Positions 957 through 27,082 of a stretch of 48,271 bases of DNA are shown here, in pieces. Source of the DNA: Thermoleophilia bacterium (GTDB lineage Bacteria; Actinomycetota; Thermoleophilia; Miltoncostaeales; Miltoncostaeaceae); contig JAGQUM010000021.1 of NCBI GenBank assembly GCA_020438485.1, positions 1 to 48,271 of the forward strand, given 5' to 3'. A program made the translations under genes and the position numbers. The notes beneath the pieces were generated by a model, which did no database searches, had not been told where the DNA came from, and saw only the letters and a program-made list of their open reading frames with translations. Position 1 is the first letter of the stretch. Every line of letters begins with the position of its first letter.

Positions 957-2873
957 TCAGATGCGTCGCTTCGTGACCACCGCGCGGACGAAGCGTGGCT
1001 TTCCGCGCACCTGCTTCTGCACGGCGACCACGCGCACGTTGCGCAGCGAGCCGGGCTTGCCCGCCCGGTTGACGTAGCAGAGCACGGGGCGCATGGCGAC
1101 GGCCTTGCGGAACGTGCAGACGCGGATGCGCTTCTTGCGCGAGAAGACGGTCACCTGCAGGCGGCCGCTGCGGTTCGGCGTCAGCTTCACCACCACGCGC
1201 TTGCCGATGCGGGCGACCAGGGGCTTGCCGAGGCTGGGCCGCTTCGACTTCGACGGGCCGCCGGCGATGCCTGCGGGCACGGGCAGCAGGAGGCCCTTGG
1301 TGGGCGACGTGATCGCGATGCTCACCGCGCTCGAGACCGACGCGTCCGTGCTCATCGCGGCCGCGACCGTCACCGAACCGCCGGCCGGGACCCTCGCCGG
1401 GGCGCGGTAGACACCCGTGGGTGTGATGGTGCCCACCGTCGCGTTGCCGCCGGGGTCGCCGTTGACGCTCCACGAGACGCCACCCGTGCCGTTGAGGACG
1501 CTGGCGTCGAGGTCGACCTCGGTGCCCGCGGGCATCGACGTGGGCGCACCCGCGATCACGATGCTGGGACCGGGGTTGCCGACGTTGACGGTCGCGGCTG
1601 CCGTCGGCGGGTTCAGCGGGTACGCGCTGGCCGCGTCGCGCACGGCGAAGCGGAAGCCGTCGGCGACGTTGCCGACGCCGCGGTGAGGCGTGTAGCGCAC
1701 GGCGGTGGCGGAGAAGGCCTGGCCCACCGCGACGGGCTGGCCGTTGACCGTCAGCTGCCCGTTGGCGGGCCCCTGGGTCACGACGAACTGGCGGTTGGCG
1801 GGGTCGGGGGTGTACGGCTGGCACACGCGATCGTCGCCCCCCGCCGGGTCCTTCTTGCAGGTGGTCGAGTAGGCCGTGGCCGAGAGCGCGATGTCCACGC
1901 CGCGTCCCGAGTCCGTGGCCGCGGGCGCCGGTGCGACCGGCAGCCAGCCGGGGATGGTGAACGTGCCGGTGGTGCGCGCGACGGGGTTGTTCTCGTCGGA
2001 CTCCCAAACGCGGTTGTTGGGGTCCACCTGACCTCCCAGCCGGTACCGGCCGGGCGCGACGTCCGACACGTCGATCCACTGCCAGCCCAGGTTGCTGGAG
2101 TACAGGTCCCGGTAGCCGGGGTTGATGCCCTCCCTAAGGATGTTGCTGCCCGAGCTGTTGCCCTGGTTGCAGAACGACATGGAGTACGGGATGCCGTAGC
2201 CGTACCTCTGGGCGGGTGTGAGCTCGGTGAACCCGCGGTTCGGGATGAACTCGCTGTCCTGCAGGCAGAATCCGACCTTCTGGCCGTTACCCACCTGGGC
2301 CGTGTTGGCCTCGTTCCACAGGCTGTACGTCGCGGCCCCCACCAGGTGCCAGTGGTTGTGGCCGTCGGACGCGGCGACGCTGTCCGTGGTGGAGTAGATG
2401 AAACACGGGCCCACGGGCGGCTTCGGGCCCAGCGGGTTCGGCGCCGTACACGTGGGCGTGCCCTCGGCGTCGTTGTTGAGGTTGCCCTGGTACTGGGGCT
2501 GCGCGATGCCGGCCGCCACCATGCTGCCGTCGGCGCGCTTCACGTACTGGGTCATGTTGCGGCTGGCGGGCGTGCCCTGGTAGTCCACGGGGCCCGCACC
2601 CTCGTTGTTCACGTAGCCGTCGAAGCGCACCAGCAGGCGGTTGCCACCGTTCGGAAGCGTCGTCCCGTCCTCGGGCGACATGCCGGCGTCGGCACCCTGA
2701 CCGCCGGTGAACGCCCCCTCCATGAGGTAGGCGCTGTTCAGGGGCGGGGCCGTGGAGACGAGGTCGGGCAGGACGAGGTCGCCGGGACCGGCGTTGACGA
2801 GGGGGACGGCGACGCCCGCGGCGGCGGCCGCGCCCGCGATCCCCAGGGAGGCGATGAGGTTCTTTCTGCGCAT
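957..2873 (-). CDS. Secreted lysyl-oxidase-like protein with C-terminal beta domains
   Basis: This 638-residue protein starts at ATG 2873 (MRRKNLIASLG plus an Ala-rich signal peptide). A much longer reading frame continues upstream but belongs to the antisense of the neighbouring gene. Residues about 30-320 form a lysyl-oxidase-like domain with the His cluster DGHNHWHLVGAATYSLW near residue 170, then FCLQDSEFIPNRGFTEL and WQWIDVSDVAPGRYRLGGQVDP, a pattern typical of bacterial lysyl oxidase homologues. After a linker come cadherin-like/Ig-like segments (GVSWSVNGDPGGNATVGTIT resembles a bacterial Ig-like repeat) and a basic C-terminal beta domain (GRLQVTVFSRKKRIRVC). Lysyl oxidases form aldehydes on lysines using copper and a lysine tyrosylquinone cofactor; a role in cross-linking matrix protein is inferred. 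It lies downstream of the flippase-polymerase fusion on the same strand, with a 158-bp gap. Confidence 0.88.
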   Translation of the reverse strand: MRRKNLIASLGIAGAAAAAGVAVPLVNAGPGDLVLPDLVSTAPPLNSAYLMEGAFTGGQGADAGMSPEDGTTLPNGGNRLLVRFDGYVNNEGAGPVDYQGTPASRNMTQYVKRADGSMVAAGIAQPQYQGNLNNDAEGTPTCTAPNPLGPKPPVGPCFIYSTTDSVAASDGHNHWHLVGAATYSLWNEANTAQVGNGQKVGFCLQDSEFIPNRGFTELTPAQRYGYGIPYSMSFCNQGNSSGSNILREGINPGYRDLYSSNLGWQWIDVSDVAPGRYRLGGQVDPNNRVWESDENNPVARTTGTFTIPGWLPVAPAPAATDSGRGVDIALSATAYSTTCKKDPAGGDDRVCQPYTPDPANRQFVVTQGPANGQLTVNGQPVAVGQAFSATAVRYTPHRGVGNVADGFRFAVRDAASAYPLNPPTAAATVNVGNPGPSIVIAGAPTSMPAGTEVDLDASVLNGTGGVSWSVNGDPGGNATVGTITPTGVYRAPARVPAGGSVTVAAAMSTDASVSSAVSIAITSPTKGLLLPVPAGIAGGPSKSKRPSLGKPLVARIGKRVVVKLTPNRSGRLQVTVFSRKKRIRVCTFRKAVAMRPVLCYVNRAGKPGSLRNVRVVAVQKQVRGKPRFVRAVVTKRRI

Positions 2874-3031: not shown

Positions 3032-5989
3032 TTACGCGGGGCCGGTCACGGCGGCACGGGGCGGGGGAGGCGCGGTGGCCCGCCGGCCGCGGGGCGCGGC
3101 CATGACGCGCGCCGCGCGGGCATGGGCCGTCGCGCGCCGCCCCTGGGCGAGACCCAGCATCCCCACGCACATGCCCATCAGGATCCAGAGGTCCCGCGCG
3201 TACTGCCCCGAGATGAAGAAGTTGGCCGCCAGGAATCCCCCGGCGCCGGCCAGCAGCGTCCGGCACAGGAACTCGGCCGCGGTGTCGCCCAGGGCGCGGA
3301 AGATCATCGCCGCCCGCAGCGTCGCCAGCAGGCAGGCCAGCAGGATCGAGATGTAGAGCGCCGCGCCGATCGCCCCCAGCTCGACGGCGATGTGCAGATA
3401 CATGTTGTGCGCCACCTTCACGTCGGTGGTGAAGAAGTCGACGCGGCGCAGCAGCCCCGGCTGCGCGATGTAGCGGGGGGTCGCGTCCACGAACGTCCCC
3501 GCCCCCGTGCCCACGATGGGGTGGTCCTCGTACGCGCGCGTACCGACCTTCCAGATGTCCGAACGGCCCGTTCCGGCGCTCGTGCCGTAGCTCTGGCCGT
3601 TCGTGATGGTGGCGAACCGCTCCTTCGTGGCGGGCGACGCGGCGACCATGATGTAGCCGGCGCCCAGCACGGCCACCAGAACGCTCGCCGCCGCCACCCG
3701 CAGCCGCCAGCGCCCGCCGAACGCGATCCACACGCCCAGCGCGATGACCACGCCGATCATGCCGCCGCGCGACCCGGACAGCACGAGCCCGACGGCGGCG
3801 AGGGTCGCGCAGGCGCCGAACGCGAGCTGGTGGAGGGCCTTGCGGGACGTCGCGATCATCCCCACCGAGATCAGGATGCCGGGGATGCAGAACGCGGCCC
3901 ACTCGTTGGCGTCCTGGAACGTGCCGGTGAACCTGCCCTCCGTGAACCGCCCCAGCGCGAGCCCGGTGATCGCGGTGAGGCCCACCGACAGGGCGAACGC
4001 CCCGCAGATGCGTCGCATCGCCGCGTCGCTCCACGCGGCCGTGAACACGATCACCAAGAGCACGAAGCCCAGCGCGAACCGCTGGATCGCGTCGACCGAG
4101 TCGGCGGTGTTGAGGCTCCAGAGGATCGACGCGCACGCCCAGGCCAGGAAGCCGAACATCAGCCATCCCAGCAGCGGGATGGTGTGCAGGAAGCGGGCGT
4201 ACCGTCCGCGGGTGGCGGGGTATCGCAGCGACACCAGCCACGTGACCATCAGCAGCACGCCGCCGCCCTTGGTCAGCAGGGTCTCGCCGGCCCCGAACAG
4301 CATGCCGAACGGCTGCACGAGCACGAACACGATGACGCCGGTGGTGACGTTGGTCAGCAGCAGGGCCATGAACGCCAGCCCCACGGTCAGCGCGACGGCG
4401 ATCAGCGGCGATCGCCCCGTCACCAGGCCGATGCCGATGGCCCCGAGCAGGATCATGGACGCGGTGGCCGAGGGCAGCTTGACCTCGGTGGTCACCACAC
4501 CGCCCAGCAGTCGGTCGAGCGGGCGGGGCAGCGAGACGGCACGCCCCGAGGCCTCCCCCAGGGCCAGGATGGTCAGCGCGGCGACCACCAGGCCGGTGAC
4601 GATCGCGGCGATCAGCGTGAGCCACGGCGGGCCGGGCAGCTCGAGCACCGTCCAGCACGCCGCGGCTCCCAGGGCCGCGCCCGCGACGGCGCGACCGCCG
4701 GTGCGCGCCAGCGACCGCGTGGGCATCGGCAGGTGTCGCACGACGGCCCAGTAATGGCCCGCCACGAACGTCGCGATGGCGATGTTCGTGGCGATGGCCG
4801 GGCCCATCAGGCCCACGGTCGGGATGAGGATCAGGTCCAGCGCCACGTTGATGACGAGCGCGATGAGGGCGATCCACTTGCGGATCTCCGACCCGCCGAT
4901 GTAGTCGAGGCTGCGCGCGATGATCGGCGCCATCCCGACCAGCACGATGTACGGCACCAGGACGCGCAGGATGTCGCCGCTGCGTCCGAACTCGTCTCCC
5001 AGCAGCAGCGCCGCGGCCCGGGGGGCGGCGATCGCGGTGATCGCCCCGACGACCAGGTAGAAGATCAGCGAGACCCGCAGCACGTTCGACAGGACGCGCG
5101 ACGCGATCTCCGGCGGCTGGCCGGCGATGCGCGGCGGCACGGTGGACGCCAGGCTGACGCCCAGGAGGCCCAGGATCGTGGCCGCCCGCCAGGCCATGTC
5201 GTAGAGGCCCACCGCGTCCTGGTTGAGCAGCGCGGCGATCATCACCACGTCGATGCGGTCGAACAGCATCCACGCGATGCCTGCGGCCCACACGTGCGCG
5301 CCGTAGCGGACGATCTCCCGGCCGCCGGTCTCATGCACGGGGCGCCCGTCCGAGTTGCGGGTGAGGTACCGGCGTATCACCCAGAAGCCGAACAGCACAC
5401 TGGCGGCGTAGCCGACGGCGTTGCCCGCGATGGCGCCGATCACGCCCGAGCCCGCCAGCAGCAGCATCATCACGGCCGCGAACTCCACGAGGGACTTCAC
5501 GATGGACAGCAGCGCCAGGTTGCGGCCGTCCTGGACCGCCTCGATGATGCTGCCGACCCACGTGAAGAAGAGCGTGCCCAGCAGCGCGAACGCTGCCGCC
5601 TGGATGGGCCGGGTGTGGTTCCCGTCGACCACCCTGCTGATGACGGGTGCCAGCCCCAGCACCAGCACCAGGGCACCGGCGGCCAGCATCGTCCGCAGCC
5701 GCAGGCTCGCGGCGACCACCTTGCCGATGCCCTCGCCCCCGTTGTGGGCCTGGGCGACGTACCGGCCCGCGGCCGTGTCGATGCCCATCGTGGCCAGCAT
5801 CGCCGCGAGCGTCGCGACGGTCATCGCGAACGCGTACTCGCTGTACTCGCTGAGGCCCAGCGCGCGGCCCAGCACGACGGTGAGGACGCCCGTGGACAGG
5901 GCACCCACGACGCGTGAGCCGAGGACCAGCGCGGTCTGGGAGGCGATCTCCCGGCCGCGGCCGGCGGCGTTGCCGGGAGACGGCGCCAC
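3032..5989 (-). CDS. Flippase-polymerase (Wzx-Wzy) fusion membrane protein
   Basis: This single 985-residue reading frame starts at GTG 5989, five bases after the stop of the co-polymerase gene, so the two are probably translationally coupled. Residues about 15-490 match the Wzx/polysaccharide_synt flippase family: paired hydrophobic helices, LGRALGLSEYSEYAFAMT near the N-terminus, and an internal duplication with LLNQDAVGLYDMAWRAATIL. Residues about 510-950 match the O-antigen ligase/Wzy polymerase family: TGTFQDANEWAAF, SGSRGG (near residue 737), SDIWKVGTRAYEDHPIVGTG and AHNMYLHIAVELG (near 858), with about 10-12 further membrane segments. Flipping of lipid-linked repeats and their polymerisation would then be carried out by one polypeptide in the inner membrane. 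These activities are normally separate proteins of 400-500 residues. The tail beyond about 950 is a basic, disordered Ala/Arg/Pro stretch. Function is inferred from both halves. Confidence 0.88.
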   Translation of the reverse strand: MAPSPGNAAGRGREIASQTALVLGSRVVGALSTGVLTVVLGRALGLSEYSEYAFAMTVATLAAMLATMGIDTAAGRYVAQAHNGGEGIGKVVAASLRLRTMLAAGALVLVLGLAPVISRVVDGNHTRPIQAAAFALLGTLFFTWVGSIIEAVQDGRNLALLSIVKSLVEFAAVMMLLLAGSGVIGAIAGNAVGYAASVLFGFWVIRRYLTRNSDGRPVHETGGREIVRYGAHVWAAGIAWMLFDRIDVVMIAALLNQDAVGLYDMAWRAATILGLLGVSLASTVPPRIAGQPPEIASRVLSNVLRVSLIFYLVVGAITAIAAPRAAALLLGDEFGRSGDILRVLVPYIVLVGMAPIIARSLDYIGGSEIRKWIALIALVINVALDLILIPTVGLMGPAIATNIAIATFVAGHYWAVVRHLPMPTRSLARTGGRAVAGAALGAAACWTVLELPGPPWLTLIAAIVTGLVVAALTILALGEASGRAVSLPRPLDRLLGGVVTTEVKLPSATASMILLGAIGIGLVTGRSPLIAVALTVGLAFMALLLTNVTTGVIVFVLVQPFGMLFGAGETLLTKGGGVLLMVTWLVSLRYPATRGRYARFLHTIPLLGWLMFGFLAWACASILWSLNTADSVDAIQRFALGFVLLVIVFTAAWSDAAMRRICGAFALSVGLTAITGLALGRFTEGRFTGTFQDANEWAAFCIPGILISVGMIATSRKALHQLAFGACATLAAVGLVLSGSRGGMIGVVIALGVWIAFGGRWRLRVAAASVLVAVLGAGYIMVAASPATKERFATITNGQSYGTSAGTGRSDIWKVGTRAYEDHPIVGTGAGTFVDATPRYIAQPGLLRRVDFFTTDVKVAHNMYLHIAVELGAIGAALYISILLACLLATLRAAMIFRALGDTAAEFLCRTLLAGAGGFLAANFFISGQYARDLWILMGMCVGMLGLAQGRRATAHARAARVMAAPRGRRATAPPPPRAAVTGPA

Positions 5990-16021: not shown

Positions 16022-17191
16022 CTAGGGGCTGTACCAGAGCATCTCGAACGTCAGCACGGCCAGCAGCACCACGCCGATGCCGGCCCAAAGGCGCATGCGC
16101 CGCCGCCCGCCCTCCTCGAGCCACGTCGCCCCCGCCCAGGCCAGGGGGTACGCCAGCAGCCCGAAGCGCGTCATCGACGTCAGCGACCCGCTGGCCAGCG
16201 GCAGCGCGAACGTCGCCGCCGTGTACAGGACCCACGGGCTGCGCCACCCCTCCATGCGGTACAGCCGCACGAGCAGCCACGCGTACACGGCGACGCCGAT
16301 CGACTGGCGCCACACGGGGACCCACCAGTGGTAGAAGTCGCCCCGCGCCAGCGCGCGGATGGAGTCGCCCACCTCCACCGGCAGGTACGTGATGACGCCG
16401 ACGACCAGCGGGCCGCGCTTCCACGCCTCCTGCGCCACGAACGGCAGGTTCCAGGCGCCGCGGGTGAGTTGCATCCACGCCAGGTACGCGCCCAGCGTCA
16501 GCGCGGCGGGCACGAGAGCCACGGCCGCACGGCGGGCCCGCGCGGCCGTGGGGCCGCCGCGGTCGAACGCGATCAGCGCCACCAGCACGGCCACCAGGAC
16601 CCCCGGGGGACGGGCCAGGGTGGCGGCCGACGCGACGCACGCGGCCCAGCCGATGCGTCCCCGGTGGGCCAGGTAGCCGGCCGCGACGGCCAGGGCCAGC
16701 GTGACGGCCTCGGTGTAGGCCATGGACGCGTAGACCGTCGGGGGAAACAGCGCGGTGCCCCACGTGACGACGTCGGCGCGCCTCTCGCCGAAGCGCTCGG
16801 CGGTGAGGCGGCGCAGACCGACGAGGGCGCCGAGGAACGCGAGGTTGTTGACGACCAGCGCGAAGACGAACGGGTTGACGTGCAGCGCGATGCCCGCCTT
16901 CATCACCACGGGCACCAGCGGGAAGAACGGCAGGTTGGTGTAGACCGCCCCCGCGAGGTCGGTGTAATGGTCGTACCCGTGCTGGGCGATGTCCAGGTAC
17001 CAGCTCGTGTCCCAGCCGCCCAGCGCGGCCAGCCAGCGGGGCACCAAGCGGTCGACCCCGAGGCGCGGCTCGCCGAACGTCAGCGACGCGGCCGCCGCCG
17101 CGGCCAGCACCACCAGGCGGCTGAGCGCCCACGCCCGCACCGGCGTGGACCACGTGGTGGGGTGCCGCAGGCGGGCGAGGGCCGCGGTCAC
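16022..17191 (-). CDS. PIG-V-like mannosyltransferase (GT-C)
   Basis: I start this at GTG 17191, whose GTGA overlaps the stop of the DUF2079 gene, consistent with the operon's coupling pattern; the frame is open further upstream but only as a shadow. The 389-residue protein has about nine to ten membrane segments. The first extracytoplasmic loop carries GGWDTSWYLDIAQHGYDHY (about residues 58-76) and then TNLPFFPLVPVV. This matches the WDxxWYLxIAxxGY and PFFPLYP signatures of the PIG-V/GPI mannosyltransferase 2 family and its bacterial relatives, with Asp61 the likely catalytic acid. These enzymes use polyprenyl-phosphate-mannose on the outer face. It is the last gene of the seven-gene operon. 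Acceptor unknown. Confidence 0.82.
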   Translation of the reverse strand: MTAALARLRHPTTWSTPVRAWALSRLVVLAAAAAASLTFGEPRLGVDRLVPRWLAALGGWDTSWYLDIAQHGYDHYTDLAGAVYTNLPFFPLVPVVMKAGIALHVNPFVFALVVNNLAFLGALVGLRRLTAERFGERRADVVTWGTALFPPTVYASMAYTEAVTLALAVAAGYLAHRGRIGWAACVASAATLARPPGVLVAVLVALIAFDRGGPTAARARRAAVALVPAALTLGAYLAWMQLTRGAWNLPFVAQEAWKRGPLVVGVITYLPVEVGDSIRALARGDFYHWWVPVWRQSIGVAVYAWLLVRLYRMEGWRSPWVLYTAATFALPLASGSLTSMTRFGLLAYPLAWAGATWLEEGGRRRMRLWAGIGVVLLAVLTFEMLWYSP

Positions 17192-18708
17192 GACGGCACG
17201 CGCGGGGAAGGGGCCACGCGCCGGAACACCATCACCCCGTCGCGGTCGAACACCTGGCGGAACCGGGGGTCGGTGCGCATGGCCAGCGCGTGGGGCGCGA
17301 ACTGGGCGGGCGACACCATGATGTCGGCCAGGTACGGCCTCCGCATGTCGATGATCACCCACCGCGCCGACCCCACGACCGGGTACGAGAAGATGCGGCG
17401 CCGGTCCGACAGGCGGGCCCCGAACGGGTTTCCCGCCGACACGGGGACCCCCCTCGGGATCAGCGCGACCCCCTCGGCCATCGCGGCGGCGTGCGGTGTG
17501 GACTCAAGCTCCCAGCGACGGTCCGTGGACCCGCCCGGCACGCCGTACCACACCGGCAGCGGCCCCAGGCGCCACCCGCCGGCGAGGGCGGCCACCACCA
17601 GTAGCCCCGCCCACGCCGCGGGGCGCCCCGCCTCACGGGGAAGCCGCGGCGAGTCGAGGACCCTCCCCAGCGTGCGGACGGCTGCGGCCACCAGGAACGG
17701 CGTCGCGACCGCCGTGTACTGGAACTGCACCGAGTACTGGGGCCAGTAGTTGGTCAGCACGTTCATCGCGATCTCGGGCACCGCCCCCAGCGCCAGGAGG
17801 GGGGACCCGAGCGGCAGGAACGCCAGCGGCGCCAGCAGCGCCACCAGGTAGAGCATCTTGGGCTCGGTGAACACGGTGCGAGCGACGAGGCCGGGGTCGG
17901 TGAGCAGCGCCTTGGGGACGTCCGTGAGGCTGCCGCCGAGGTGGGCGTACCGGCCCGCGAACGGGTTCTCGCCGTCGGCGGGGGCGAAGCGCGGAATGAT
18001 GATCGTCATGCACGCGGCGGTCCACGCGAGGCCGCCGACGGCCAGCGCGGCCCCCCACCGCCGGCGGCCGTGGGCGACGGCGCACCACACCCCCAGGAAC
18101 ACGACTCCCAGGCCGACATGCTCCTTTGTGGCGAGCGCCAGCACCACGCACACGGCGCACACGGCGGGGCGGTCCTCCTCGATGGCCCATATCGCGTACA
18201 GCAGCAGCGGCACGGCCAGCACCACCGGGTGGAACTCGCTGATCTGCGACCACAGGAGCGGCGGGTACAGGAGGTAGGCGGCCACGGCGCCCAGCGCGAT
18301 CGCGTCCGAGCCGATCCAGCGGCGGGCCAGCCAGAACACCGGCCAGCCGCCCAGCGCGACGGCCGTGGACTGCACGATCAGCAGCATCTGCGGGTGCGGG
18401 AACACGGCCCACAGGGGCGCGAACAGCACGAGGATCGGGTCGACGTGGGCCCCCAGGCGGACGAACTGCTCGCCGTGGGTGTCGGTGCTCTCCAGCGGGC
18501 GGCCCTGCGTGGTGCTCCAGATGGCCTGCACCATGTTGCCCAGGTCGAAGCGGCCGGCCCAGAAGTTGTCGTACCGGTGGATCGCCAGCCACGACATGCC
18601 CACGGCGGCCGCCACCATCAGCAGCGCCGCGGCCAGCGTGGCCGGGTCGCGACGCGGGTCTGGCGGGCGCACGCGGGGGATGCCCCACGGCAGGTCCCGG
18701 ACGCTCAC
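17188..18708 (-). CDS. DUF2079 polytopic membrane protein, putative GT-C transferase
   Basis: I start this at GTG 18708, overlapping the stop of the upstream gene by 4 nt (GTGA). The 506-residue protein has about ten membrane helices. Residues about 46-100 contain YDNFWAGRFDLGNMVQAIW, THGEQFVRLGAHVDPILVLFAPLWAVFP and a following helix. This is the DUF2079 signature: a small aromatic/acidic motif, then an H-x-DP motif next to a membrane segment. The C-terminal 100 residues are a soluble extracytoplasmic part (RFRQVFDRDGVMVFRR). DUF2079 proteins are thought to be GT-C-like glycosyltransferases acting on lipid-linked sugars; function is inferred. Confidence 0.82.
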   Translation of the reverse strand: MSVRDLPWGIPRVRPPDPRRDPATLAAALLMVAAAVGMSWLAIHRYDNFWAGRFDLGNMVQAIWSTTQGRPLESTDTHGEQFVRLGAHVDPILVLFAPLWAVFPHPQMLLIVQSTAVALGGWPVFWLARRWIGSDAIALGAVAAYLLYPPLLWSQISEFHPVVLAVPLLLYAIWAIEEDRPAVCAVCVVLALATKEHVGLGVVFLGVWCAVAHGRRRWGAALAVGGLAWTAACMTIIIPRFAPADGENPFAGRYAHLGGSLTDVPKALLTDPGLVARTVFTEPKMLYLVALLAPLAFLPLGSPLLALGAVPEIAMNVLTNYWPQYSVQFQYTAVATPFLVAAAVRTLGRVLDSPRLPREAGRPAAWAGLLVVAALAGGWRLGPLPVWYGVPGGSTDRRWELESTPHAAAMAEGVALIPRGVPVSAGNPFGARLSDRRRIFSYPVVGSARWVIIDMRRPYLADIMVSPAQFAPHALAMRTDPRFRQVFDRDGVMVFRRVAPSPRVPS

Positions 18709-19628
18709 CGGCGCCGCGCCCACAGCGCGATGGCGCCCACCACCGCCAGCTCCACCACGGTCAGCAGCAGGCGCGCGGACGCCGACAGGGCCACCGCGAC
18801 CCCCTGCGGCACGTTCTGGGCCAGCGCCAGCGCGAACGCCCCGTCGCGCACGCCGAGGCCCGACGGGAAGATCACGAGCACCATGGACAGCGTGAACGCG
18901 AACAGGAACGCCCCGCCGACGAATGCGAGTCCCCCCACGCCGGGGCCCGCCAGGGCGCGCATGGCCATCCAGACACCCAGCGACAGCAACACCGCCGTGA
19001 GGGCGTACCAGGCCGCGAGCGCCGCGACGCGACGGGCGCCGATGAGACGCCCGAGGGGCTCGCGTCCCGCCCGCCGCAGCGCCCACGCCGAGGCCGGCCC
19101 GAACACCCGGGGGTGCAGCGCAACCAGCAACCCGGCCGCCGCGGCCACCGCCGCCAGGCCCCACGCGGAGCCCACCACGCCGTACACCGCCACGAACGCC
19201 ACGGCGCCGAGCGCGGCGACGCCGAGGCCCAGCGCCTGCTCGTACACCAGCGCCGCGGCCGACACCCGTCGCGGCACGCCGTGCCGCAGCGACATCTCCA
19301 CGCGTCCCACCACCATCAGCACGCTACCCGGCACGTAGCGCCCCAGCAGCGACGTCGCCCACGCCGACAGCACCCCCGCGCGCGGCACGGGGCGCCCCGT
19401 GAGGGACTCGAGCACGCCCAGGTACCCGGCGCCGCTGGTCAGCAGGAACACGGCCAGGACGGCCACGGACCCGGCGAGTAGCCACGGGTCGACGTCCCAC
19501 CGGTACTCCCGCACCTGCGACCAGCCGCGCACCAGCGCCCATCCGAGGAACGCCACCACCACCAGGGACGCGACGAGCCCCACCCGCCGCCGCCACGAGG
19601 GCCGCCCGCGCGGCGCCGGGTCGGTCAT
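18705..19628 (-). CDS. LPG_synthase_TM (UPF0104) family membrane protein
   Basis: The 307-residue protein starts at ATG 19628, with the ATGA overlapping the upstream methyltransferase stop. About seven to eight membrane helices are evident. Family motifs SLLGRYVPGSVLMVVGR (about 92-108) and IFPSGLGVRDGAF in the later half match the lysylphosphatidylglycerol-synthase transmembrane/UPF0104 family. In MprF this module flips lipids. Stand-alone members occur beside glycosyltransferases and are suspected lipid or lipid-sugar flippases. In this operon it is the only transporter-like gene and is the best candidate for moving the lipid-linked product across the membrane. Confidence 0.82.
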   Translation of the reverse strand: MTDPAPRGRPSWRRRVGLVASLVVVAFLGWALVRGWSQVREYRWDVDPWLLAGSVAVLAVFLLTSGAGYLGVLESLTGRPVPRAGVLSAWATSLLGRYVPGSVLMVVGRVEMSLRHGVPRRVSAAALVYEQALGLGVAALGAVAFVAVYGVVGSAWGLAAVAAAAGLLVALHPRVFGPASAWALRRAGREPLGRLIGARRVAALAAWYALTAVLLSLGVWMAMRALAGPGVGGLAFVGGAFLFAFTLSMVLVIFPSGLGVRDGAFALALAQNVPQGVAVALSASARLLLTVVELAVVGAIALWARRR

Positions 19629-20383
19629 CCGGGCGCCCGGGCGGTGGCGAGGAGCCCCATGTAGCCGGGGCGGCGCCCAAGGAACAGCCGGTCCAGCGAC
19701 AATGCGGCCCGCAGCACGCGCCCGGCCAACGCGGGGGGCGCGCCCATGTCCGCGTCGCCGCCGCGCAGCAGGCGCCGCCGCAGCATGGGGCGGTAGACGT
19801 GCCGGTGGTAGAGGCCCGTCACCGGGAACCCCCAGGCGTAGACGTCCACGCTCACCAGGCCCGCGTCAGCCAGCAGCGCCTCGAGGCCCTCGGGCGTGTA
19901 GCGGCGGCGGTGCCCGGCCCAGCGGTCGGTCCAGTCGTAGCGGAACGGCCCGGCCGGGACGCTCACCACGACCAACGCCCCGGGGCGGCACGCGCGGCGC
20001 AGCTCGCGCGCGGCGCCGACGTCGTCATCGAGGTGCTCGAGGACCTCCGCGCACACCACCAGGTCGGCCGACGCGTCGTCTACGGGAAGCGCCGTCATGT
20101 CGCCACGCACGGCCCGGTGCGGCCCGCCGGAGGCGGCGCCGAGAACGGCGCCCAGGTGCTCGGCGAAGCCCTCGCTGCCGTCGACGGCGGTGACGCGGTA
20201 CCCGCGCGCGGCGAGGGCCCGCGACATGCTGCCGGCGCCCGCGCCGGCGTCCAACGCGTCGCGTCCGGGGGTGGCGCGGCGGTCGATCTCGCGCAGCAGC
20301 AGCGATTCGCGGAACGCGTGGCGGGGCCCGAACATCTCGGTGGAGTCGCCCCAGGCGTGCTCGTCGACGGGGCCGGAGCTCAC
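19625..20383 (-). CDS. Class I SAM-dependent methyltransferase
   Basis: I start this 252-residue protein at GTG 20383, with GTGA overlapping the GT4 stop; the frame is open upstream only as a shadow. Motif I is ALDAGAGAGSMSRALAARG (about 43-61), motif II is VTAVDGSEG, and motif IV is ADLVVCAEVLEHLDDD, followed by RPGALVVVSVPAGPF. This is the UbiE/Methyltransf_11-type Rossmann fold that binds SAM. Near its C-terminus lies an unusual Tyr/His/Arg-rich segment (GLYHRHVYRPMLRRR), perhaps a membrane-interface helix. It probably methylates a sugar or lipid of the glycan made by this operon; acceptor unknown. Confidence 0.85.
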   Translation of the reverse strand: MSSGPVDEHAWGDSTEMFGPRHAFRESLLLREIDRRATPGRDALDAGAGAGSMSRALAARGYRVTAVDGSEGFAEHLGAVLGAASGGPHRAVRGDMTALPVDDASADLVVCAEVLEHLDDDVGAARELRRACRPGALVVVSVPAGPFRYDWTDRWAGHRRRYTPEGLEALLADAGLVSVDVYAWGFPVTGLYHRHVYRPMLRRRLLRGGDADMGAPPALAGRVLRAALSLDRLFLGRRPGYMGLLATARAPG

Positions 20384-21483
20384 GCGGCCTCCACCGCCGC
20401 CACTAGGCGGGCCGCGACCGCCTCGGGTGTTCCCAGGCGCGCGTACGTGGCGCGGGCCTCGGTGCCCATGCGGGCCCGCAGCCCGGCGTCGGTCGCCAGG
20501 CGGGTCAGGGCGGCGGCCAGCGCGGGGACGTCGGCGGGCGGCACCAGCAGTGCGTTCTCGCCGTCGCGCAGCACCTCCCGCGCGCCGGGGGTGTCGGCCG
20601 TCACCACAGGGCGGCCCACCGACATGGCCTGCCAGACCTTGTTGGGCACGACGCGCCCGGCCTTGTCGCTGGTGCCGAAGACCCCCAGCGCGATGTGGTG
20701 GCGGGCGATCTCGGCCCCCAGGTCGCGGTACGGGATCCACGGCACGTGCGTGACGCCCGGCGCCCCGGCGTCCAGACGCCCGCGCAGCCACGACATCAGC
20801 TGCCCGTCGCCGACCACCGTGACGGGGGGCGCGCCCGGCACGGCCGCCGCCTCGAGCACCGTGGGCAGGCCGTGCAGCGGAGCGAGCTTGCCGATGAACA
20901 CGGCGCTCACCGGCGCGTCGGCGGGGGACGGGACTGCAGCGGGGGGGAAGAGGGCGGGCTCGGCGCCCACCGGCACGACGACGGTGCGGCGGGGATCCAC
21001 GCCGAGGTGGGCGACCATCCAGTCGGCGTTGGCCCGCGTGTCGGCCATCACCACTTGCGCGCCGCGGGCCAGGCGGTCGACGGCGGTCAGCACGCGGCCG
21101 CCCACGACGCCCACCCGGCCGCGGTCGCCGGCCAGCGTGTCGCCCAGCGCGATCATCATGTCGGCCACCAGCGGCACCCGGCGGCGGCGGGCCACCAGGC
21201 GGCCCAGCGGCAGGTCCGGCTGGGCCGGGTAACCCACGACGACGGCGTCCACCGGCCCGACGCGTCGCTCGCGGCGCGCCAGCAGGGCCCACGCGCGCGC
21301 CGCCGCCGCGCCGGAACGGGCCAGCGACGCGGGCGCCAGGAACCCGCCGGCCTTGTGGCGGGTCCGCTCCCACAGGGGCTCATGGCACTCGACCACGTCG
21401 TGGCCCAGCGCGCGCAGGCCCTGGCGCAGCACCGCCCCCCTGGGGTACTCGGCCTCGTACGTGCCCAGCCAGAGGAACCTCAC
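20380..21483 (-). CDS. GT4-family glycosyltransferase
   Basis: I start this 367-residue protein at GTG 21483, where the GTGA overlaps the GT2 stop. The first line of the fold is RFLWLGTYEAEYPRGAVLRQ, and a GT-B architecture follows. The N-terminal domain includes VADMMIALGDTLAGDR. The C-terminal donor domain has VFIGKLAPLHGLPTVLEAA, VTVVGDGQL, a KVWQAMSVGRPVVTADTPGA stretch in place of a canonical E-x7-E, and NALLVPPAD. It is the only predicted cytosolic GT-B enzyme of the seven-gene operon, so it probably adds the NDP-sugar-derived residue before export. The first Glu of E-x7-E is not obvious (KAGRVVPNKVWQAM). Confidence 0.82.
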   Translation of the reverse strand: MRFLWLGTYEAEYPRGAVLRQGLRALGHDVVECHEPLWERTRHKAGGFLAPASLARSGAAAARAWALLARRERRVGPVDAVVVGYPAQPDLPLGRLVARRRRVPLVADMMIALGDTLAGDRGRVGVVGGRVLTAVDRLARGAQVVMADTRANADWMVAHLGVDPRRTVVVPVGAEPALFPPAAVPSPADAPVSAVFIGKLAPLHGLPTVLEAAAVPGAPPVTVVGDGQLMSWLRGRLDAGAPGVTHVPWIPYRDLGAEIARHHIALGVFGTSDKAGRVVPNKVWQAMSVGRPVVTADTPGAREVLRDGENALLVPPADVPALAAALTRLATDAGLRARMGTEARATYARLGTPEAVAARLVAAVEAA

Positions 21484-22424
21484 CGGCGCACCTCGCGCAC
21501 CCGCGCGGCGGCCTCGTCGGCGCGGGTGCGCTGGTGCTGGCGCTGCACCATCTCGCTCATCAGGCCGATGGTGAGGAACTGCATGCCCACCAGGATCAGC
21601 AGCACGCCCAGCAACAGCAGGGGCCGCTGGCCGATGGCGTACCCGGCGAACTTCAGCACCGACAGGTACCCCGACACCGCCAGCCCGACCAGCAGCATCA
21701 GCAGCCCGAGCCCGCCGAACAGGTGCATCGGCCGGTGGCGGTACCGCCCGAGGAACGTGATGGTGAGCAGGTCGAGCATGCCGCGCACGTAACGCTCGAG
21801 CCCGTACTTGCTGCGGCCGTGCGTGCGGGGACGGTGGTTGACGCCCAGCTCGCCCACGCGGAAGCCCTCGTTGTGGGCCAGCACGGGTATGTAGCGGTAC
21901 TGGTCTCCGGCCAGGGCCAGCGCGGCGACCACCTCGGCGCGGTACGCCTTGAACCCGCAGTTGAGGTCGTGCAGATCCAGGCCCGACACCCTCCGCGTCA
22001 CGGCGTTGAACAGCTTGGACGGCAGGCGCTTGCCGGCGGGGTCCTGGCGGTCCACCTTCCAGCCGCTGACGAGGTCGAGGCCGCCGTCCAGCGCGTCGAG
22101 GAAGCGGGGGATCTCGGCCGGGTCGTCCTGGAGGTCGCCGTCGATAGTGATGACGATGCCGCCGCGGGCCTCGCGGAACCCCGCCATCAGCGCTTCGGAC
22201 TTGCCGAAGTTGCGCCGCAGCGCGACCAGCGCCACCTCCGGCTCGCGCTCCACCGCGGCTTCCAGCACGGCCCCCGTCCCGTCGCGGGAGCCGTCGTCCA
22301 CGAAGATGACCTCGAACGAGCGCCCCAGGCCGCGCATCACCGGGAGCATCTCCCCCAGCAGGGGCTCGACGTTGTCGCGCTCGTCGCATACGGGGACGAC
22401 GACGGAGATCTCAGGGTGGGGCAT
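21480..22424 (-). CDS. GT2 polyprenyl-phosphate-sugar synthase (DPM-like)
   Basis: The 314-residue protein starts at ATG 22424, overlapping the upstream stop by one base (TGATG). Residues 1-225 form a GT-A domain: ISVVVPVCDERDNV, FVDDGSRDG (41-49), RRNFGKSEALMAG and ITIDGDLQDDP (92-102, the DxD metal site). SGWKVDRQDP and NCGFKAYR follow. Two membrane helices lie at about 236-258 and 270-292. This is the layout of dolichol-phosphate mannose synthase and bacterial polyprenyl-phosphate-sugar synthases such as the ArnC/GtrB group. It probably charges a polyprenyl phosphate with mannose or another hexose for the GT-C enzymes downstream. Confidence 0.86.
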   Translation of the reverse strand: MPHPEISVVVPVCDERDNVEPLLGEMLPVMRGLGRSFEVIFVDDGSRDGTGAVLEAAVEREPEVALVALRRNFGKSEALMAGFREARGGIVITIDGDLQDDPAEIPRFLDALDGGLDLVSGWKVDRQDPAGKRLPSKLFNAVTRRVSGLDLHDLNCGFKAYRAEVVAALALAGDQYRYIPVLAHNEGFRVGELGVNHRPRTHGRSKYGLERYVRGMLDLLTITFLGRYRHRPMHLFGGLGLLMLLVGLAVSGYLSVLKFAGYAIGQRPLLLLGVLLILVGMQFLTIGLMSEMVQRQHQRTRADEAAARVREVRR

Positions 22425-24181
22425 CAGCGCTCGATCCTGGGGAGCCGGGCCTTGGCGACCAGGCGGGGCCGGGGCACCCGCCGGCGGTGCTCGCGGCGCA
22501 TGAGGCCCTTGCGGAACCGGACGAACACCAGGATCGCCATGGACAGGATCGCGCACGACAGCAGCAGGGCGAACACCGGCCAGACGGTGCCCCGCGCCCC
22601 GCCCGCCGTGGTGGCGATGAGGTACCACGCGGCGAAGAAGGGGTTGCGGCCCAGCTGGGTGCCCACCGACACGCACAGCGCGGCGAGCGGCAGCAGGCCA
22701 ACGAGGCCGAGGATGACGGCGTGCCACCGGCGCGTCACCGATGTGGCCACCAGCACGGCGTGCGCGGCCGGCAGGGTCAGCACCAGCACGAACGGCGTGA
22801 CGAACCACGCCACCAACGACACGACGCCCAGCAGGATGAGCCCGGCCGCCGCCTCGCTGGCCGGCGCCGCGCCCAGCCGCCGCATCGCGCGGTGCGACAG
22901 CCACCAGGCCAGCGCGGCGAGCGCCAGCGTCACGACGACGGACACCAGCTCGCCCGCCCCGAAGCCGACGCCGCGCGGCAGCGGCGGCACGCCCGCGGCG
23001 GGCTGGGGCATCAGGTGCATCAGAGAAAGGAAGTGGAGCGCGAAGCACGCCACCACCAGCGGCACGGAACGCAGCAGCGCCGCGCGCATCCCCGGGCCCA
23101 TCCGCACGCCCGAGCGGCGCAGCCGCGAGAACGCGTCCAGGGCCACGACCCACAGGGGCAAGGCGAACAGGGCGAGGACGATCCTCAGCACGCCCGGCTT
23201 CAGCTCCTTGCCCGACAGCATCACGCCCGACTCCGGCCGGGGTTGTGCCAGGTTCTGGTCGATCAGGGACAACAGCGTCACGGCGACGTTGCCGGCTCGC
23301 TGCAGCCGCTGGGCATCCGGCGCCGCGACGGGACGCGCGGGCCCGTCGGGGCGCGACGACAGCGTCACGGCCGGGATGCCCGCCTGAACGAACGGCGCCT
23401 GGTCACCGAACGTCTGCGGCACCGCGAAGCGCAGGAGCTGGTTGATGAGGCTGGGCTCCGGCGCGGCCGTGGCGCCGGACCAGGGCAGCGTCTCCCGCAC
23501 GATCGACGCGAAGCCCAGGGCCTGTGTGGGCGTCCGCGCGCCGCCCCACACCCACACTGGTCCGTCGCGCTCGCCGACGCCGTCCAGCACGATCACGGCA
23601 GAGATGCGGAAGTCCGAGAACCGCGACAGGAACCAGCGCGCCCCCGCGTTGCCGACGGCCGACCCGGACGTGGACACGAACAGCATGGGGTGACGCCGGG
23701 CGGCGGTCGCCTCGTAGCGGGCGGCCTCCAGCAGCAGCGCGGTGCTCGATGTGTCGGCGGGCGAGCCGGGTGCCGAGTCCCGCGGTGCCATCACCACGAT
23801 GCCCTGGGGATCGAGCCCCCCCGTGGTGCCCGGCAGCACGGCGTAGACGTTCACCATCCGCTCGAGCTCACCGTCCACGCGGGCCGAGAACACCTGCCGG
23901 CGGACGCGCGGCTTGAGCCCGGACAGCGACGGCAGGGACGCGAACTGACGCGCAACCCAGTCCGCCGACGCCTGCTCGGCCGCCGGGGACCCCGCGACCC
24001 GCACGGGCGCAAGCGCGCGGAGGTCCTCCGTGGCCCTCAGGATCGTGCGGGCGTCGGCGGATCCCGGCAGCGCGGGGCGCTCCAGCCCCTGGGTGGCCGG
24101 GGGCTGCAGCGTCAGCAGGGCGACGATGATCGCCACCGCGGACACGAGCCACGCGGTGCGGTAGAGGCGAGCGTTCAGCAA
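22424..24181 (-). CDS. M28-peptidase-like domain fused to polytopic membrane domain, predicted inactive
   Basis: The 585-residue protein starts at TTG 24181; no ATG or GTG occurs nearby upstream, and the first in-frame GTG downstream (residue 13) would remove part of the first helix. There is one N-terminal helix (11-27), an extracytoplasmic domain (about 40-310) and about seven helices (about 330-565) with a basic tail. The soluble domain aligns with M28 aminopeptidases by VVMAPRDSAPGSPADTSSTALLLEAARY, MLFVSTSGSAVGNAGARWFL, IVLDGVG and TFGDQAPFVQAGIPAV. Most metal and catalytic residues are lost: the first His (PRD, 133-135), the Glu-Glu pair (SA, 174-175) and the last His (Gln261). Asp143 and Asp200 remain. 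It heads the seven-gene operon. Confidence 0.8.
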   Translation of the reverse strand: MLNARLYRTAWLVSAVAIIVALLTLQPPATQGLERPALPGSADARTILRATEDLRALAPVRVAGSPAAEQASADWVARQFASLPSLSGLKPRVRRQVFSARVDGELERMVNVYAVLPGTTGGLDPQGIVVMAPRDSAPGSPADTSSTALLLEAARYEATAARRHPMLFVSTSGSAVGNAGARWFLSRFSDFRISAVIVLDGVGERDGPVWVWGGARTPTQALGFASIVRETLPWSGATAAPEPSLINQLLRFAVPQTFGDQAPFVQAGIPAVTLSSRPDGPARPVAAPDAQRLQRAGNVAVTLLSLIDQNLAQPRPESGVMLSGKELKPGVLRIVLALFALPLWVVALDAFSRLRRSGVRMGPGMRAALLRSVPLVVACFALHFLSLMHLMPQPAAGVPPLPRGVGFGAGELVSVVVTLALAALAWWLSHRAMRRLGAAPASEAAAGLILLGVVSLVAWFVTPFVLVLTLPAAHAVLVATSVTRRWHAVILGLVGLLPLAALCVSVGTQLGRNPFFAAWYLIATTAGGARGTVWPVFALLLSCAILSMAILVFVRFRKGLMRREHRRRVPRPRLVAKARLPRIER

Positions 24182-24277: not shown

Positions 24278-24340
24278 GGACCACCGGAGCGGTCGCGAAA
24301 GGCCCCCGGGTTACCCGGACCCGTACAGGTGGGCCCGCCC

Positions 24341-25576
24341 GTGTTGCACCCCATGAGCGTGGGCCGACGCTCGGTCCTCCACTACCAGTCGCTCGTCGAC
24401 CGCGAGCTGATCGCGGAGCTGCGGGAGATCGCGGCCGACATCCGCGGCATGCGCATCTGCCACGTCAGCGGGCACGGCGACGGCGGCGGCGTGAGCGAAC
24501 TGCTGGCCAGCACCGTCCCGCTGTTCACCGACCTGGGGCTTCACGCCACGTGGCGGGTGCTCGGCGGGCGGCCCTCGTTCTTCCGAGCCGCGGCCGCGCT
24601 GCACGACGGCCTCCAGGGCGCCGAGGTGTCGTTCGACGGCGACCTGCGTCGCACGTTCGAGCGGTACAGCCTGCTGAACGCCGGGGGCATGGACGGCCCG
24701 TACGACGTGGTGGTCGTGCACGACGCGCACCCGCTGGGCCTGCGGGGCAGCGTGGAGGCGCTGGACGACGCCACGTGGATCTGGCGGTGCCACCTCGACA
24801 TGTCGACCCCGGCGCCGTGGGTGTTCGACGTTGTTCGCCCCCTGCTCGACGGCTACGACCTGAGCGTGTTCCACATGCCGCAGTACGCCCCCGCCGAGAT
24901 CGTGCCGGAGCCCGTCGTCATACCGCCGGCGATCGACCCGCTGGCGCCGAAGAACATGGGGTTGCCGCGCCCTGACGCCGCCGACGTGGTGGCGCGGTTC
25001 GGCGTGGACCCGGGGCGGCCGCTGATGGTGCAGGTGTCGCGCTTCGACCCATGGAAGGACCCGCTGGGGGTGATCGACGCATTCCGCGCCGCGCGCACCG
25101 AGGTCCCCGGTCTGCAGCTGGCGCTGGTCGGGCCGCGCAGCCTCGACGACGGCGCGGCCGAGTTCTTCGGCCGCGTGGTCGACCACGCGGCCGGCGACCC
25201 CGACATCCACCTGCTGGCCGACCCGCAGCGCGTGGGCCCCATCGAGGTGAACGCGCTCCAGACCCATGCCGACGTGGTGGTGCAGAAGTCGCTGCGCGAG
25301 GGTTTCGGGCTGACCGTCACGGAGGCGCTGTGGAAAGCGCGGCCCACCGTGGCGAGCAACATCGGGGGCATCCCCAGCCAGATCGCGGACGGCTCCACCG
25401 GCTTCCTGGTGGACGGGCCCGCGGAGTGCGCGCGGCGGGTCGTGGACGTCATCCGCGACCCCGCCGGTGCCGCGGAGATGGCCGAGCGCGGCAAGCAGCA
25501 CGTGCGCCACGGCTTCCTCACCCCCCGGATGATGCGCGACTGGCTCAGCCTGCTGAGGAGGGTCGCGAACCGCTGA
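24341..25576 (+). CDS. treT: TreT-like trehalose glycosyltransferring synthase (GT4)
   Basis: Possible starts are GTG 24329, GTG 24341 and ATG 24353. I chose 24341 because AGGTGGG lies 7-8 nt upstream; 24353 is nearly as good. The protein (about 411 residues) has the TreT N-terminal pattern LHYQSLVDRELIAELREIA, then ICHVSGHGDGGGVSELLAS. VVVHDAHPLGL, IWRCHLDMSTP and a GT-B C-terminal half follow, with QVSRFDPWKDPLGVIDAF, KSLREGFGLTVTEAL (E-x7-E) and SNIGGIPSQI. TreT joins NDP-glucose and glucose into trehalose in one reversible step. The next gene encodes OtsA, so two trehalose routes sit side by side. Trehalose phosphorylase, a close relative, is the alternative reading. Confidence 0.82.
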   Translation: MLHPMSVGRRSVLHYQSLVDRELIAELREIAADIRGMRICHVSGHGDGGGVSELLASTVPLFTDLGLHATWRVLGGRPSFFRAAAALHDGLQGAEVSFDGDLRRTFERYSLLNAGGMDGPYDVVVVHDAHPLGLRGSVEALDDATWIWRCHLDMSTPAPWVFDVVRPLLDGYDLSVFHMPQYAPAEIVPEPVVIPPAIDPLAPKNMGLPRPDAADVVARFGVDPGRPLMVQVSRFDPWKDPLGVIDAFRAARTEVPGLQLALVGPRSLDDGAAEFFGRVVDHAAGDPDIHLLADPQRVGPIEVNALQTHADVVVQKSLREGFGLTVTEALWKARPTVASNIGGIPSQIADGSTGFLVDGPAECARRVVDVIRDPAGAAEMAERGKQHVRHGFLTPRMMRDWLSLLRRVANR

Positions 25577-25615: not shown

Positions 25616-27082
25616 ATGAGCCCGAACGACGAGCGCCTGATCCTGGTCAGCAACCGCGGCCCCGTCACGTACGAGCGCGACGACGAAGGGCGCGTCGCCC
25701 GCCCCGGCGGCGGCGGGCTGGTGACGGCCCTGTCCGGGCTCACGGATCACCAGCCGGCCGTGTGGATCTCGGCCGCCATCAGCGACGAGGACATCGCGGT
25801 GCAGCGCGAGGCCGACGCGGGAGACGGCACGTTCCCCGTGGACGGCCTGGGACGCGACACGCTGGGGCGTTTCGTCGTGATCGACCCCGACGTGTACGAC
25901 GCGTACTACAACACCATCGCGAACCCGATGCTGTGGTTCATCCAGCACTACCTGTGGGACCTGTCCAACGTGCCGGACGTGCGTCGCCAGGAGCTGGACG
26001 CGTGGCACAACGGCTACGTGGTGGCCAACGAGCACTTCGCCGAGGCCGTCAGCGCCCAGATCGGCGACCGCTCCGAGCCGGTCGTGCTCCTGCACGACTA
26101 CCACCTGTACGTGGCCCCCGGCATCATCCGCGAACGCCACCCGGACGCGTTCCTGCACTTCTTCGTGCACATCCCGTGGGCGCAGCCCGACTACTGGTGC
26201 GTCCTGCCGCCCGAGATCCGCGAACCCATCCTGAAGGGCCTGCTGGCCAACGACATCGTCGCGTTCCACACCCGGCGCTACGCCCGCAACTTCCTGCTGT
26301 GCTGCGAGGACCTGCTGGGCCTGCGGGTGGACTACGACGCCATGAGCGTCGAGTGGGAGGGACGCACCGTCTGGGCCCGCAGCTACCCGATCTCGGTCAA
26401 CGCCCCCGCCCTGGAGGAGTACGCCGCCGGGCCCGAGGTGGCGGCCGAGGAGGGGCCGCTGCTGCGGCGGCGCCGGGCGCACCTGGTGGTGCGGGTGGAC
26501 CGGACCGACCTGTCGAAGAACGCCATCCGTGGCTTCAAGGCGTTCGACGTGTTCCTGGACGAACACCCGGAGTACCGCGAGGAGATCACGTTCCTCGCCC
26601 TGCTGCAGCCCTCCCGGCAGGACGTCGCCGAGTACGTGGAGTTCATGCAGAAGATCCTCGAGACCGTGTCGCACATCAACACCAAGCACGGAAACACGGA
26701 CTGGATGCCCATCGACCTGCGCATCGAGTCGCAGCTGGCCCGCGCGTTCGCCGCGTTCAAGCACTACGACGTGCTGCTGGTGAACTCCATCTACGACGGC
26801 ATGAACCTGGTGGCCAAGGAGGGTCCGTTGGTCAACGAGCGCGACGGCGTGATGATCCTGAGCGAGAACACCGGCGCCCACGAGGAGCTGGGCTCGTTCG
26901 CGCTGTCGGTGAACCCGTTCGACGTCGGCGCCCAGGCCGACGCCATCCACCGGGCCCTCACGATGCCGGCCGACGAGCGCGCCGACCGCAACCAGGAGAT
27001 CCGCCGGATCGTGCGCGAGAACCACGTGGGCAAGTGGCTGGAGCACCAGCTGGCCGACATCCGGGGCAAGAAGGGCGCGTAA
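25616..27082 (+). CDS. otsA: Trehalose-6-phosphate synthase (GT20)
   Basis: This 488-residue protein starts at ATG 25616. It has the OtsA order of motifs: LILVSNRGPV at the N-terminus with a Gly-rich loop (RPGGGGLVTAL), WFIQHYLWDL, LHDYHLYV, FFVHIPW, DIVAFHTRRYARNFL, a nucleotide-binding VDRTDLSKNAIRGFKAF, and YDGMNLVAKEGPLVNERDGVMILSENTGAHEEL at the donor site (split here as YDGMNLVAKE and ILSENTGAHEEL). Length matches the family (450-500). It makes trehalose-6-phosphate from glucose-6-phosphate and UDP- or ADP-glucose in the cytoplasm. No trehalose-6-phosphate phosphatase (OtsB) is in the window. A TAGACAT sequence lies 6 nt before the ATG and may be part of an internal promoter. Confidence 0.93.
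   Translation: MSPNDERLILVSNRGPVTYERDDEGRVARPGGGGLVTALSGLTDHQPAVWISAAISDEDIAVQREADAGDGTFPVDGLGRDTLGRFVVIDPDVYDAYYNTIANPMLWFIQHYLWDLSNVPDVRRQELDAWHNGYVVANEHFAEAVSAQIGDRSEPVVLLHDYHLYVAPGIIRERHPDAFLHFFVHIPWAQPDYWCVLPPEIREPILKGLLANDIVAFHTRRYARNFLLCCEDLLGLRVDYDAMSVEWEGRTVWARSYPISVNAPALEEYAAGPEVAAEEGPLLRRRRAHLVVRVDRTDLSKNAIRGFKAFDVFLDEHPEYREEITFLALLQPSRQDVAEYVEFMQKILETVSHINTKHGNTDWMPIDLRIESQLARAFAAFKHYDVLLVNSIYDGMNLVAKEGPLVNERDGVMILSENTGAHEELGSFALSVNPFDVGAQADAIHRALTMPADERADRNQEIRRIVRENHVGKWLEHQLADIRGKKGA

What the first reader, a model, noticed from the sequence alone, without database searches (positions are those of the whole stretch)
16022..24181. Seven-gene operon that recalls GPI-type lipid mannosylation
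Seen: seven minus-strand genes overlap by 1-4 nt, so they are co-translated. They include a DPM-like GT2 with two C-terminal helices, a PIG-V-like mannosyltransferase (WDTSWYLDIAQHGY), a DUF2079 GT-C-like protein, an LPG_synthase_TM protein, a GT4, a methyltransferase, and an M28-fold protein with one helix before and about seven after its soluble domain. Known: in eukaryotic GPI synthesis DPM supplies Dol-P-Man, PIG-V adds a mannose, and GPAA1, an M28-fold subunit with a similar helix layout and size, takes part in attaching the anchor. Inference: this could be a bacterial pathway that builds a mannosylated lipid and perhaps attaches it to something. Each family also occurs alone elsewhere, so coincidence is possible.
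Basis: partly seen in the sequence, partly recalled or inferred. Interest (0 to 1): 0.78.

Follow-up and report, generated by a model that had tools for sequence, protein, structure and literature searches.

The report
Glycan-building operon with dead M28 protein
Seven overlapping bacterial genes look like a kit for building a sugar chain on the outer face of the membrane; its first gene encodes a broken protease-like membrane protein which, in related bacteria, sits beside a sortase (a protein-attaching enzyme), a loose parallel to human GPI-anchor machinery but not a relative of it.

Summary
In detail: seven minus-strand genes at 16022-24181 overlap by 1 or 4 nt. The set is conserved: eight of 21 relatives in the window's family (Miltoncostaeaceae, Thermoleophilia) keep all seven in order, seven more keep five. 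The GPI reading is mostly not supported: the GT2 is far closer to bacterial ArnC/GtrB than to DPM, the M28-like profile aligns well to ordinary bacterial M28 (hhalign 98%, 1.6e-14) but not to GPAA1 (8.5%, 0.004), PIG-K-type peptidase and Gaa1 do not match in the host genome, and mannose use is unproven. The M28-like protein is nonetheless remarkable: a class-wide family (223 of 299 genomes) of predicted eight-helix M28 proteins that have lost the catalytic glutamates. Outside the window's family a class-E-like sortase gene follows it in 24 of 39 loci, often with overlapping ends. Dead M28 plus cysteine transpeptidase resembles the GPAA1/PIG-K pairing as an analogue, not a homologue. In the window's family no sortase adjoins it; the gene heads a glycan operon instead. 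Best explanation: assembly of a polyprenyl-phosphate-sugar-dependent surface glycan, with the dead M28 protein as a non-catalytic membrane subunit.

The parts
22424..24181 (-). M28-like membrane protein, 585 aa, TTG start; predicted N-terminal helix, extracytoplasmic M28 domain lacking the catalytic Glu pair (site 1 Pro133, site 5 Gln261), then 6-7 helices and a basic C-terminus
21480..22424 (-). GT2 polyprenyl-phosphate sugar transferase, ArnC/GtrB-like, with C-terminal membrane helices; 1 nt overlap with the M28-like gene
20380..21483 (-). GT4-type glycosyltransferase
19625..20383 (-). SAM-dependent methyltransferase (Methyltransf_11); missing in genus g4 of the family
18705..19628 (-). LPG_synthase_TM (flippase-like) membrane protein
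17188..18708 (-). DUF2079 membrane protein, probable GT-C-type glycosyltransferase (inference); GTG start
16022..17191 (-). PIG-V-like (PF04188) GT-C protein; W60, D61, W64, A69, G72, Y73 of the WDxxWY..IA..GY motif invariant in 20 aligned relatives
24329..25576 (+). TreT-like trehalose synthase, divergent neighbour of the M28-like gene in much of the class (context)
25616..27082 (+). OtsA-like protein (trehalose-6-phosphate synthase, recognised by eye, not profile-scanned), conserved divergent neighbour (context)

Best explanation
The operon makes and extends a cell-surface glycan on a lipid or surface-polymer acceptor. GT2 charges a polyprenyl phosphate with a sugar on the inner face (by homology). 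GT4 and the methyltransferase act on a cytoplasmic intermediate (inferred). The LPG_synthase_TM protein may help move or organise lipids (weak inference). DUF2079 and PIG-V-like GT-C proteins use the polyprenyl-linked sugar on the outer face (from family knowledge). The M28-like protein is a non-catalytic membrane subunit whose pseudo-peptidase domain binds or positions the acceptor, as GPAA1 is proposed to do. In other families of the class the same protein works beside a class-E-like sortase. Shown: operon, conservation, loss of the catalytic Glu pair, sortase linkage. Inferred: every biochemical step.
For: Gene order and overlaps. GT2 closest to ArnC (1.9e-48) and GtrB/sll0501 (3e-30), both polyprenyl-phosphate enzymes, with its D-x-D region invariant. 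DUF2079 227 bits. PIG-V motif invariant. Catalytic Glu pair missing in 58 of 59 M28-likes, site 5 His replaced by Gln in 56 of 59, while Arg134, Asp135, Ser170 and Gly177 are invariant in the 42-sequence alignment, so the protein is conserved without peptidase chemistry. M28-like present in 223 of 299 class genomes, almost always once. The window is otherwise rich in surface-polysaccharide genes: sugar transferase, Wzz, Wzy_C, MurJ/Wzx, GT4s. Sortase follows the M28-like gene in 24 of 39 loci outside the family. Cryo-EM authors propose that zinc-less GPAA1 recruits substrate (PMC9098846).
Against: No sugar, acceptor or product is known. No structure of usable quality (pLDDT 42.6). Some relatives keep the M28-like gene without the GT genes (L089-L091), so its role is not limited to this operon. 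Sortase is undetected in most genomes of the window's own family.
Confidence: 0.45

Rival explanations
1. A bacterial GPI-like pathway: mannosylated lipid made by DPM/PIG-V relatives and attached to proteins with a GPAA1 relative.
For: PIG-V family membership, GPAA1-like size and predicted helix layout, Pro at metal site 1 as in human GPAA1, weak collinear hhalign match.
Against: No Gaa1 or C13 (PIG-K) match in the host genome; Gaa1 over cut-off in 0 of 99 and C13 in 1 of 99 class genomes. M28-like far closer to ordinary M28 (vs 58). GT2 closer to ArnC than DPMS. GMP_PMI model silent in the host genome (not conclusive: the Corynebacterium control is silent too).
Confidence: 0.04
2. Protein glycosylation: GT-C proteins transfer polyprenyl-linked sugar to exported proteins, and the M28-like domain holds the polypeptide acceptor.
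For: GT-C families include protein O-mannosyltransferases (family knowledge); four PIG-V relatives also match PMT_2; M28 folds bind peptides (family knowledge); sortase partner in relatives acts on proteins.
Against: No recognised oligosaccharyltransferase or PMT in the operon; the GT4, methyltransferase and the polysaccharide surroundings fit a glycan polymer or lipid better.
Confidence: 0.2
3. The M28-like gene is simply a conserved envelope gene at the TreT/OtsA junction, and the GT operon was captured behind it; no functional link.
For: M28-like sits by TreT/OtsA in much of the class while its downstream partners differ; kept without GT genes in L089-L091.
Against: 1-4 nt overlaps with GT2 kept in several genera of the family; GT2-GT4-DUF2079 near M28-like also in family f3 (L054, L064); 24 of 39 loci outside the family carry another surface-attachment enzyme, a sortase, next to it.
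Confidence: 0.22
4. The M28-like protein is an active enzyme with altered chemistry (for example an acyl- or peptidyl-transferase).
For: Strictly conserved Arg134-Asp135, Ser170, Gly177.
Against: Loss of catalytic Glu and of metal ligands across 59 members; the best PDB match of the whole-class profile is transferrin receptor, a non-peptidase M28 relative.
Confidence: 0.08

Closest known systems
GPAA1/GAA1 of GPI transamidase
   Same: M28 fold without zinc motif (PMC9098846), about 600 aa, one helix before and about seven after the soluble domain; partner of a cysteine transamidase as the relatives' M28-like is of a sortase
   Different: No significant sequence similarity (hhalign 8.5%; no hmmsearch hit); no PIG-K counterpart in the host; sortase is not related to PIG-K
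Ordinary secreted actinobacterial M28 aminopeptidases
   Same: Soluble domain homologous over 242 columns
   Different: They keep the His/Asp/Glu metal site and lack the long helix domain
Transferrin receptor (non-peptidase M28 relative)
   Same: Best PDB match of the class profile, 6.6e-17, with the same xRD and no Glu pair
   Different: Single-pass receptor of animals; no multi-helix domain
ArnC / GtrB polyprenyl-phosphate glycosyltransferases
   Same: GT2 with full-length match (1.9e-48 and 3e-30)
   Different: Sugar unknown; below the NCBIfam ArnC cut-off (187.6 vs 529 bits)
Mannosyl_trans2 (PIG-V, PF04188)
   Same: All 20 aligned members match; W-D-x-x-W-Y motif residues conserved
   Different: Window protein below cut-off; PDB profile search found no related glycosyltransferase

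Membership tests
GPI transamidase (GPAA1 subunit) | Match to Gaa1 (PF04114) or to GPAA1 sequence | tested here: not met
   Gaa1 absent from the listed matches of 42 members (table limited to 25 families); 0 of 99 genomes over cut-off (one sub-threshold 0.01 match in the f2 M28-like); hhalign Prob 8.5%
GPI transamidase (complex) | C13 cysteine peptidase PIG-K in the genome | tested here: not met
   No PF01650 match in G000; 1 of 99 class genomes
GPI transamidase (GPAA1 subunit) | 1+7 helix layout with lumenal M28 domain lacking zinc ligands | tested here: inconclusive
   Hydropathy gives 1 + 6-7 helices, catalytic Glu pair lost; structure model unusable
Peptidase M28 (active) | Five metal ligands and catalytic Glu | tested here: not met
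   Glu pair absent 58 of 59; site 5 His in 2 of 59
M28 clan fold | Profile match to PF04389 | tested here: met
   27.1 bits over cut-off 21.3; 32 of 42 members listed as matching (E up to 10)
Dolichyl-phosphate mannose synthase | Closest to DPMS among polyprenyl-phosphate GT2 | tested here: not met
   ArnC 1.9e-48, GtrB 3e-30, PfDPMS 3.8e-17
PIG-V family PF04188 | Profile match above cut-off | tested here: inconclusive
   Window protein 20.3 vs 22.4 bits; best relative 1.7e-14
Sortase (partner in relatives) | Sortase domain with His, Cys and Arg conserved | tested here: met
   Pfam 99.3 bits, AGHRTTY..SACHP..R in 20 sequences, class-E-like but below the class E cut-off
Polyprenyl-phosphate-mannose pathway | Mannose as the sugar | not testable with these tools
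   GMP_PMI model silent in G000, but C. glutamicum control silent too

The most novel reading that the evidence does not exclude
Thermoleophilia carry a GPI-transamidase-like attachment machine built from unrelated parts: an eight-helix dead M28 subunit that recruits substrate for a class-E-like sortase, and, in the window's family, for GT-C enzymes that put a lipid-linked glycan on the acceptor.
Probability: 0.15. Interest if true: 0.85.

Novelty: new variant of a known kind. Interest (0 to 1): 0.5.

Why it matters
Dead M28 domains serve as substrate-handling subunits in two eukaryotic membrane machines (GPI transamidase; nicastrin in gamma-secretase, from family knowledge). A bacterial family with the same loss of the catalytic site and a similar predicted helix layout, encoded beside a sortase or beside GT-C enzymes, would be a genetically accessible parallel and would make the role of such subunits testable. 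It also gives a handle on envelope assembly in Thermoleophilia, where the literature search for glycosyltransferases and cell envelope found nothing.

Tried and rejected
M28-GT2 fusion ORF in L092 (905 aa): a frameshift artefact, the true M28 C-terminus lies in another frame. A deep alignment of the whole-genome loci was not handed to the predictor because its stated rule does not list them. Gaa1 model search: no hit over cut-off. Padloc scan: nothing. DUF11 surface protein between M28-like and GT2 in L080 as a sortase substrate: no LPxTG-like tail seen. Literature: no described M28-sortase pairing, and no paper holding both DUF2079 and glycosyltransferase in the library searched. Metagenome scan not available.

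Full report
Observation. The window is contig C64 of a 2.58 Mb, 95% complete genome. The nearest named relative of the M28-like protein is from a Miltoncostaeaceae MAG; a contig of the same length appears in a same-family genome, and NCBI places Miltoncostaeaceae in Thermoleophilia. The seven genes are real, at the stated coordinates, and overlap by 1 or 4 nt.

Conservation. The M28-like protein is found in 223 of 299 class genomes, almost always once. Synteny in 60 loci: in the window's family (f1) eight of 21 sampled genomes keep the full seven-gene set in order; two more are cut by contig ends; seven members of genus g4 keep M28-GT2-GT4-LPG_TM-DUF2079 without the methyltransferase and PIG-V genes; four lack most or all of the GT genes (L084, L089-L091). 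In family f3, L054 and L064 carry GT2-GT4-DUF2079 (42-59% identity) a few kilobases downstream of the M28-like gene. Upstream, TreT and/or OtsA is the divergent neighbour in most of the class, often with a two-component system and an HtrA-like protease in between.

The M28-like protein. Its sequences match M28 (32 of 42 members). A site survey of 59 sequences against an intact bacterial M28 shows the catalytic Glu pair absent in 58, site 5 His replaced by Gln in 56, site 1 His kept in 28 and the HxD Asp in all 59. Arg134-Asp135, Ser170 and Gly177 are invariant in the 42-sequence alignment. So the protein is conserved but has lost the standard peptidase site. Averaged hydropathy gives one N-terminal helix and six to seven C-terminal ones, with a basic C-terminus. 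In the phylum sample, full-length matches occur only within the class; the matches outside it cover only the soluble domain, and the ones read have intact M28 sites.

Test against GPAA1. The human GPAA1 sequence was recalled and then checked letter for letter against PDB 7w72_A. hhalign of the family profile gives Prob 8.5%, E 0.004 over 132 columns of the soluble domain; hmmsearch finds nothing. Against an ordinary actinobacterial M28 the same profile gives Prob 98.3%, E 1.6e-14. PDB profile searches return transferrin receptor and aminopeptidases among the matches shown (one search listed 60 of 86). Gaa1 is over cut-off in 0 of 99 genomes, and PIG-K-type C13 peptidase is over cut-off in 1 of 99, not in the host. 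The cryo-EM paper describes GPAA1 as eight helices plus an M28-like domain without the zinc motif, proposes substrate recruitment, and likens PIG-K chemistry to sortase transamidation (PMC9098846). The resemblance is therefore one of architecture and possibly role, not shown ancestry beyond the M28 fold.

Sortase linkage. Outside the window's family, the gene directly after the M28-like gene is often a sortase (Pfam 99 bits; class-E-like; conserved His, Cys and Arg). In the 60-locus sample a sortase lies downstream on the same strand in 24 of 39 loci outside f1 (f7 16/19, f3 6/12, f9 1/2, f11 1/1) and in 0 of 21 in f1; several pairs overlap by 1 or 4 nt. An f8 genome shows the same arrangement. 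The loci are related, so these are not independent events. The host genome has a sortase elsewhere (C59), but most f1 genomes sampled show none, so the M28-like protein does not need a sortase there.

The glycan genes. GT2 is closest to ArnC and GtrB with its catalytic motifs invariant. DUF2079 relatives occur in 47 of 99 class genomes. PIG-V-like proteins of the class share the W-D-x-x-W-Y motif residues. The rest of the window holds a sugar transferase, Wzz, three Wzy_C proteins, MurJ/Wzx flippases and several GT4 enzymes, a surface-polysaccharide setting. The sugar is unknown; the GMP_PMI model is silent in the host but also in a Corynebacterium control.

Mechanism. GT2 is likely to charge a polyprenyl phosphate inside; GT-C proteins are likely to use it outside; the M28-like protein, with its domain outside by the positive-inside rule, is likely to hold the acceptor. 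Homology supports the first two steps, inference the third. Verdict: a conserved envelope-glycan operon headed by a pseudo-peptidase, a new variant of a known kind, with an unproven but testable parallel to GPI transamidase in the sortase-linked relatives.

Noticed in passing
window 3032-5989 (-): A 985-aa ORF matches both Polysacc_synt (23-288) and Wzy_C (728-880): an apparent Wzx flippase-Wzy polymerase/ligase fusion.
   Followed up: no
L036, L034, L055 and about 20 further loci: Class-E-like sortase gene directly after the M28-like gene in families f3, f7, f9 and f11 of the class.
   Followed up: yes
L036:584-3938, L042:16015-19000 and others in f7: PIG-V-like gene followed by a HAD hydrolase and an Rce1-like CAAX protease, close to a class A PBP.
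   Followed up: partly
L077:10572-11888, L054:16140-17357: GT87 family proteins next to the PIG-V-like gene or near the GT2-GT4-DUF2079 trio.
   Followed up: no
L092:7691-10408: M28-like gene of a one-contig genome (G007) is frameshifted near residue 421, giving a spurious 905-aa ORF running into GT2.
   Followed up: yes
L080:6448-9285: DUF11/beta-helix surface protein gene sits between the M28-like and GT2 genes in G049.
   Followed up: partly
L079:1971-2417, L081:15651-16127: A 150-165 aa protein with several hydrophobic stretches and no Pfam match follows DUF2079 in many family members but is missing in the window.
   Followed up: no
window 3-788 and 957-2873 (-): Two neighbouring genes whose N-termini are nearly alike (MRRNTLLTALGG.../MRRKNLIASLGI...), probable secreted paralogues.
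   Followed up: no
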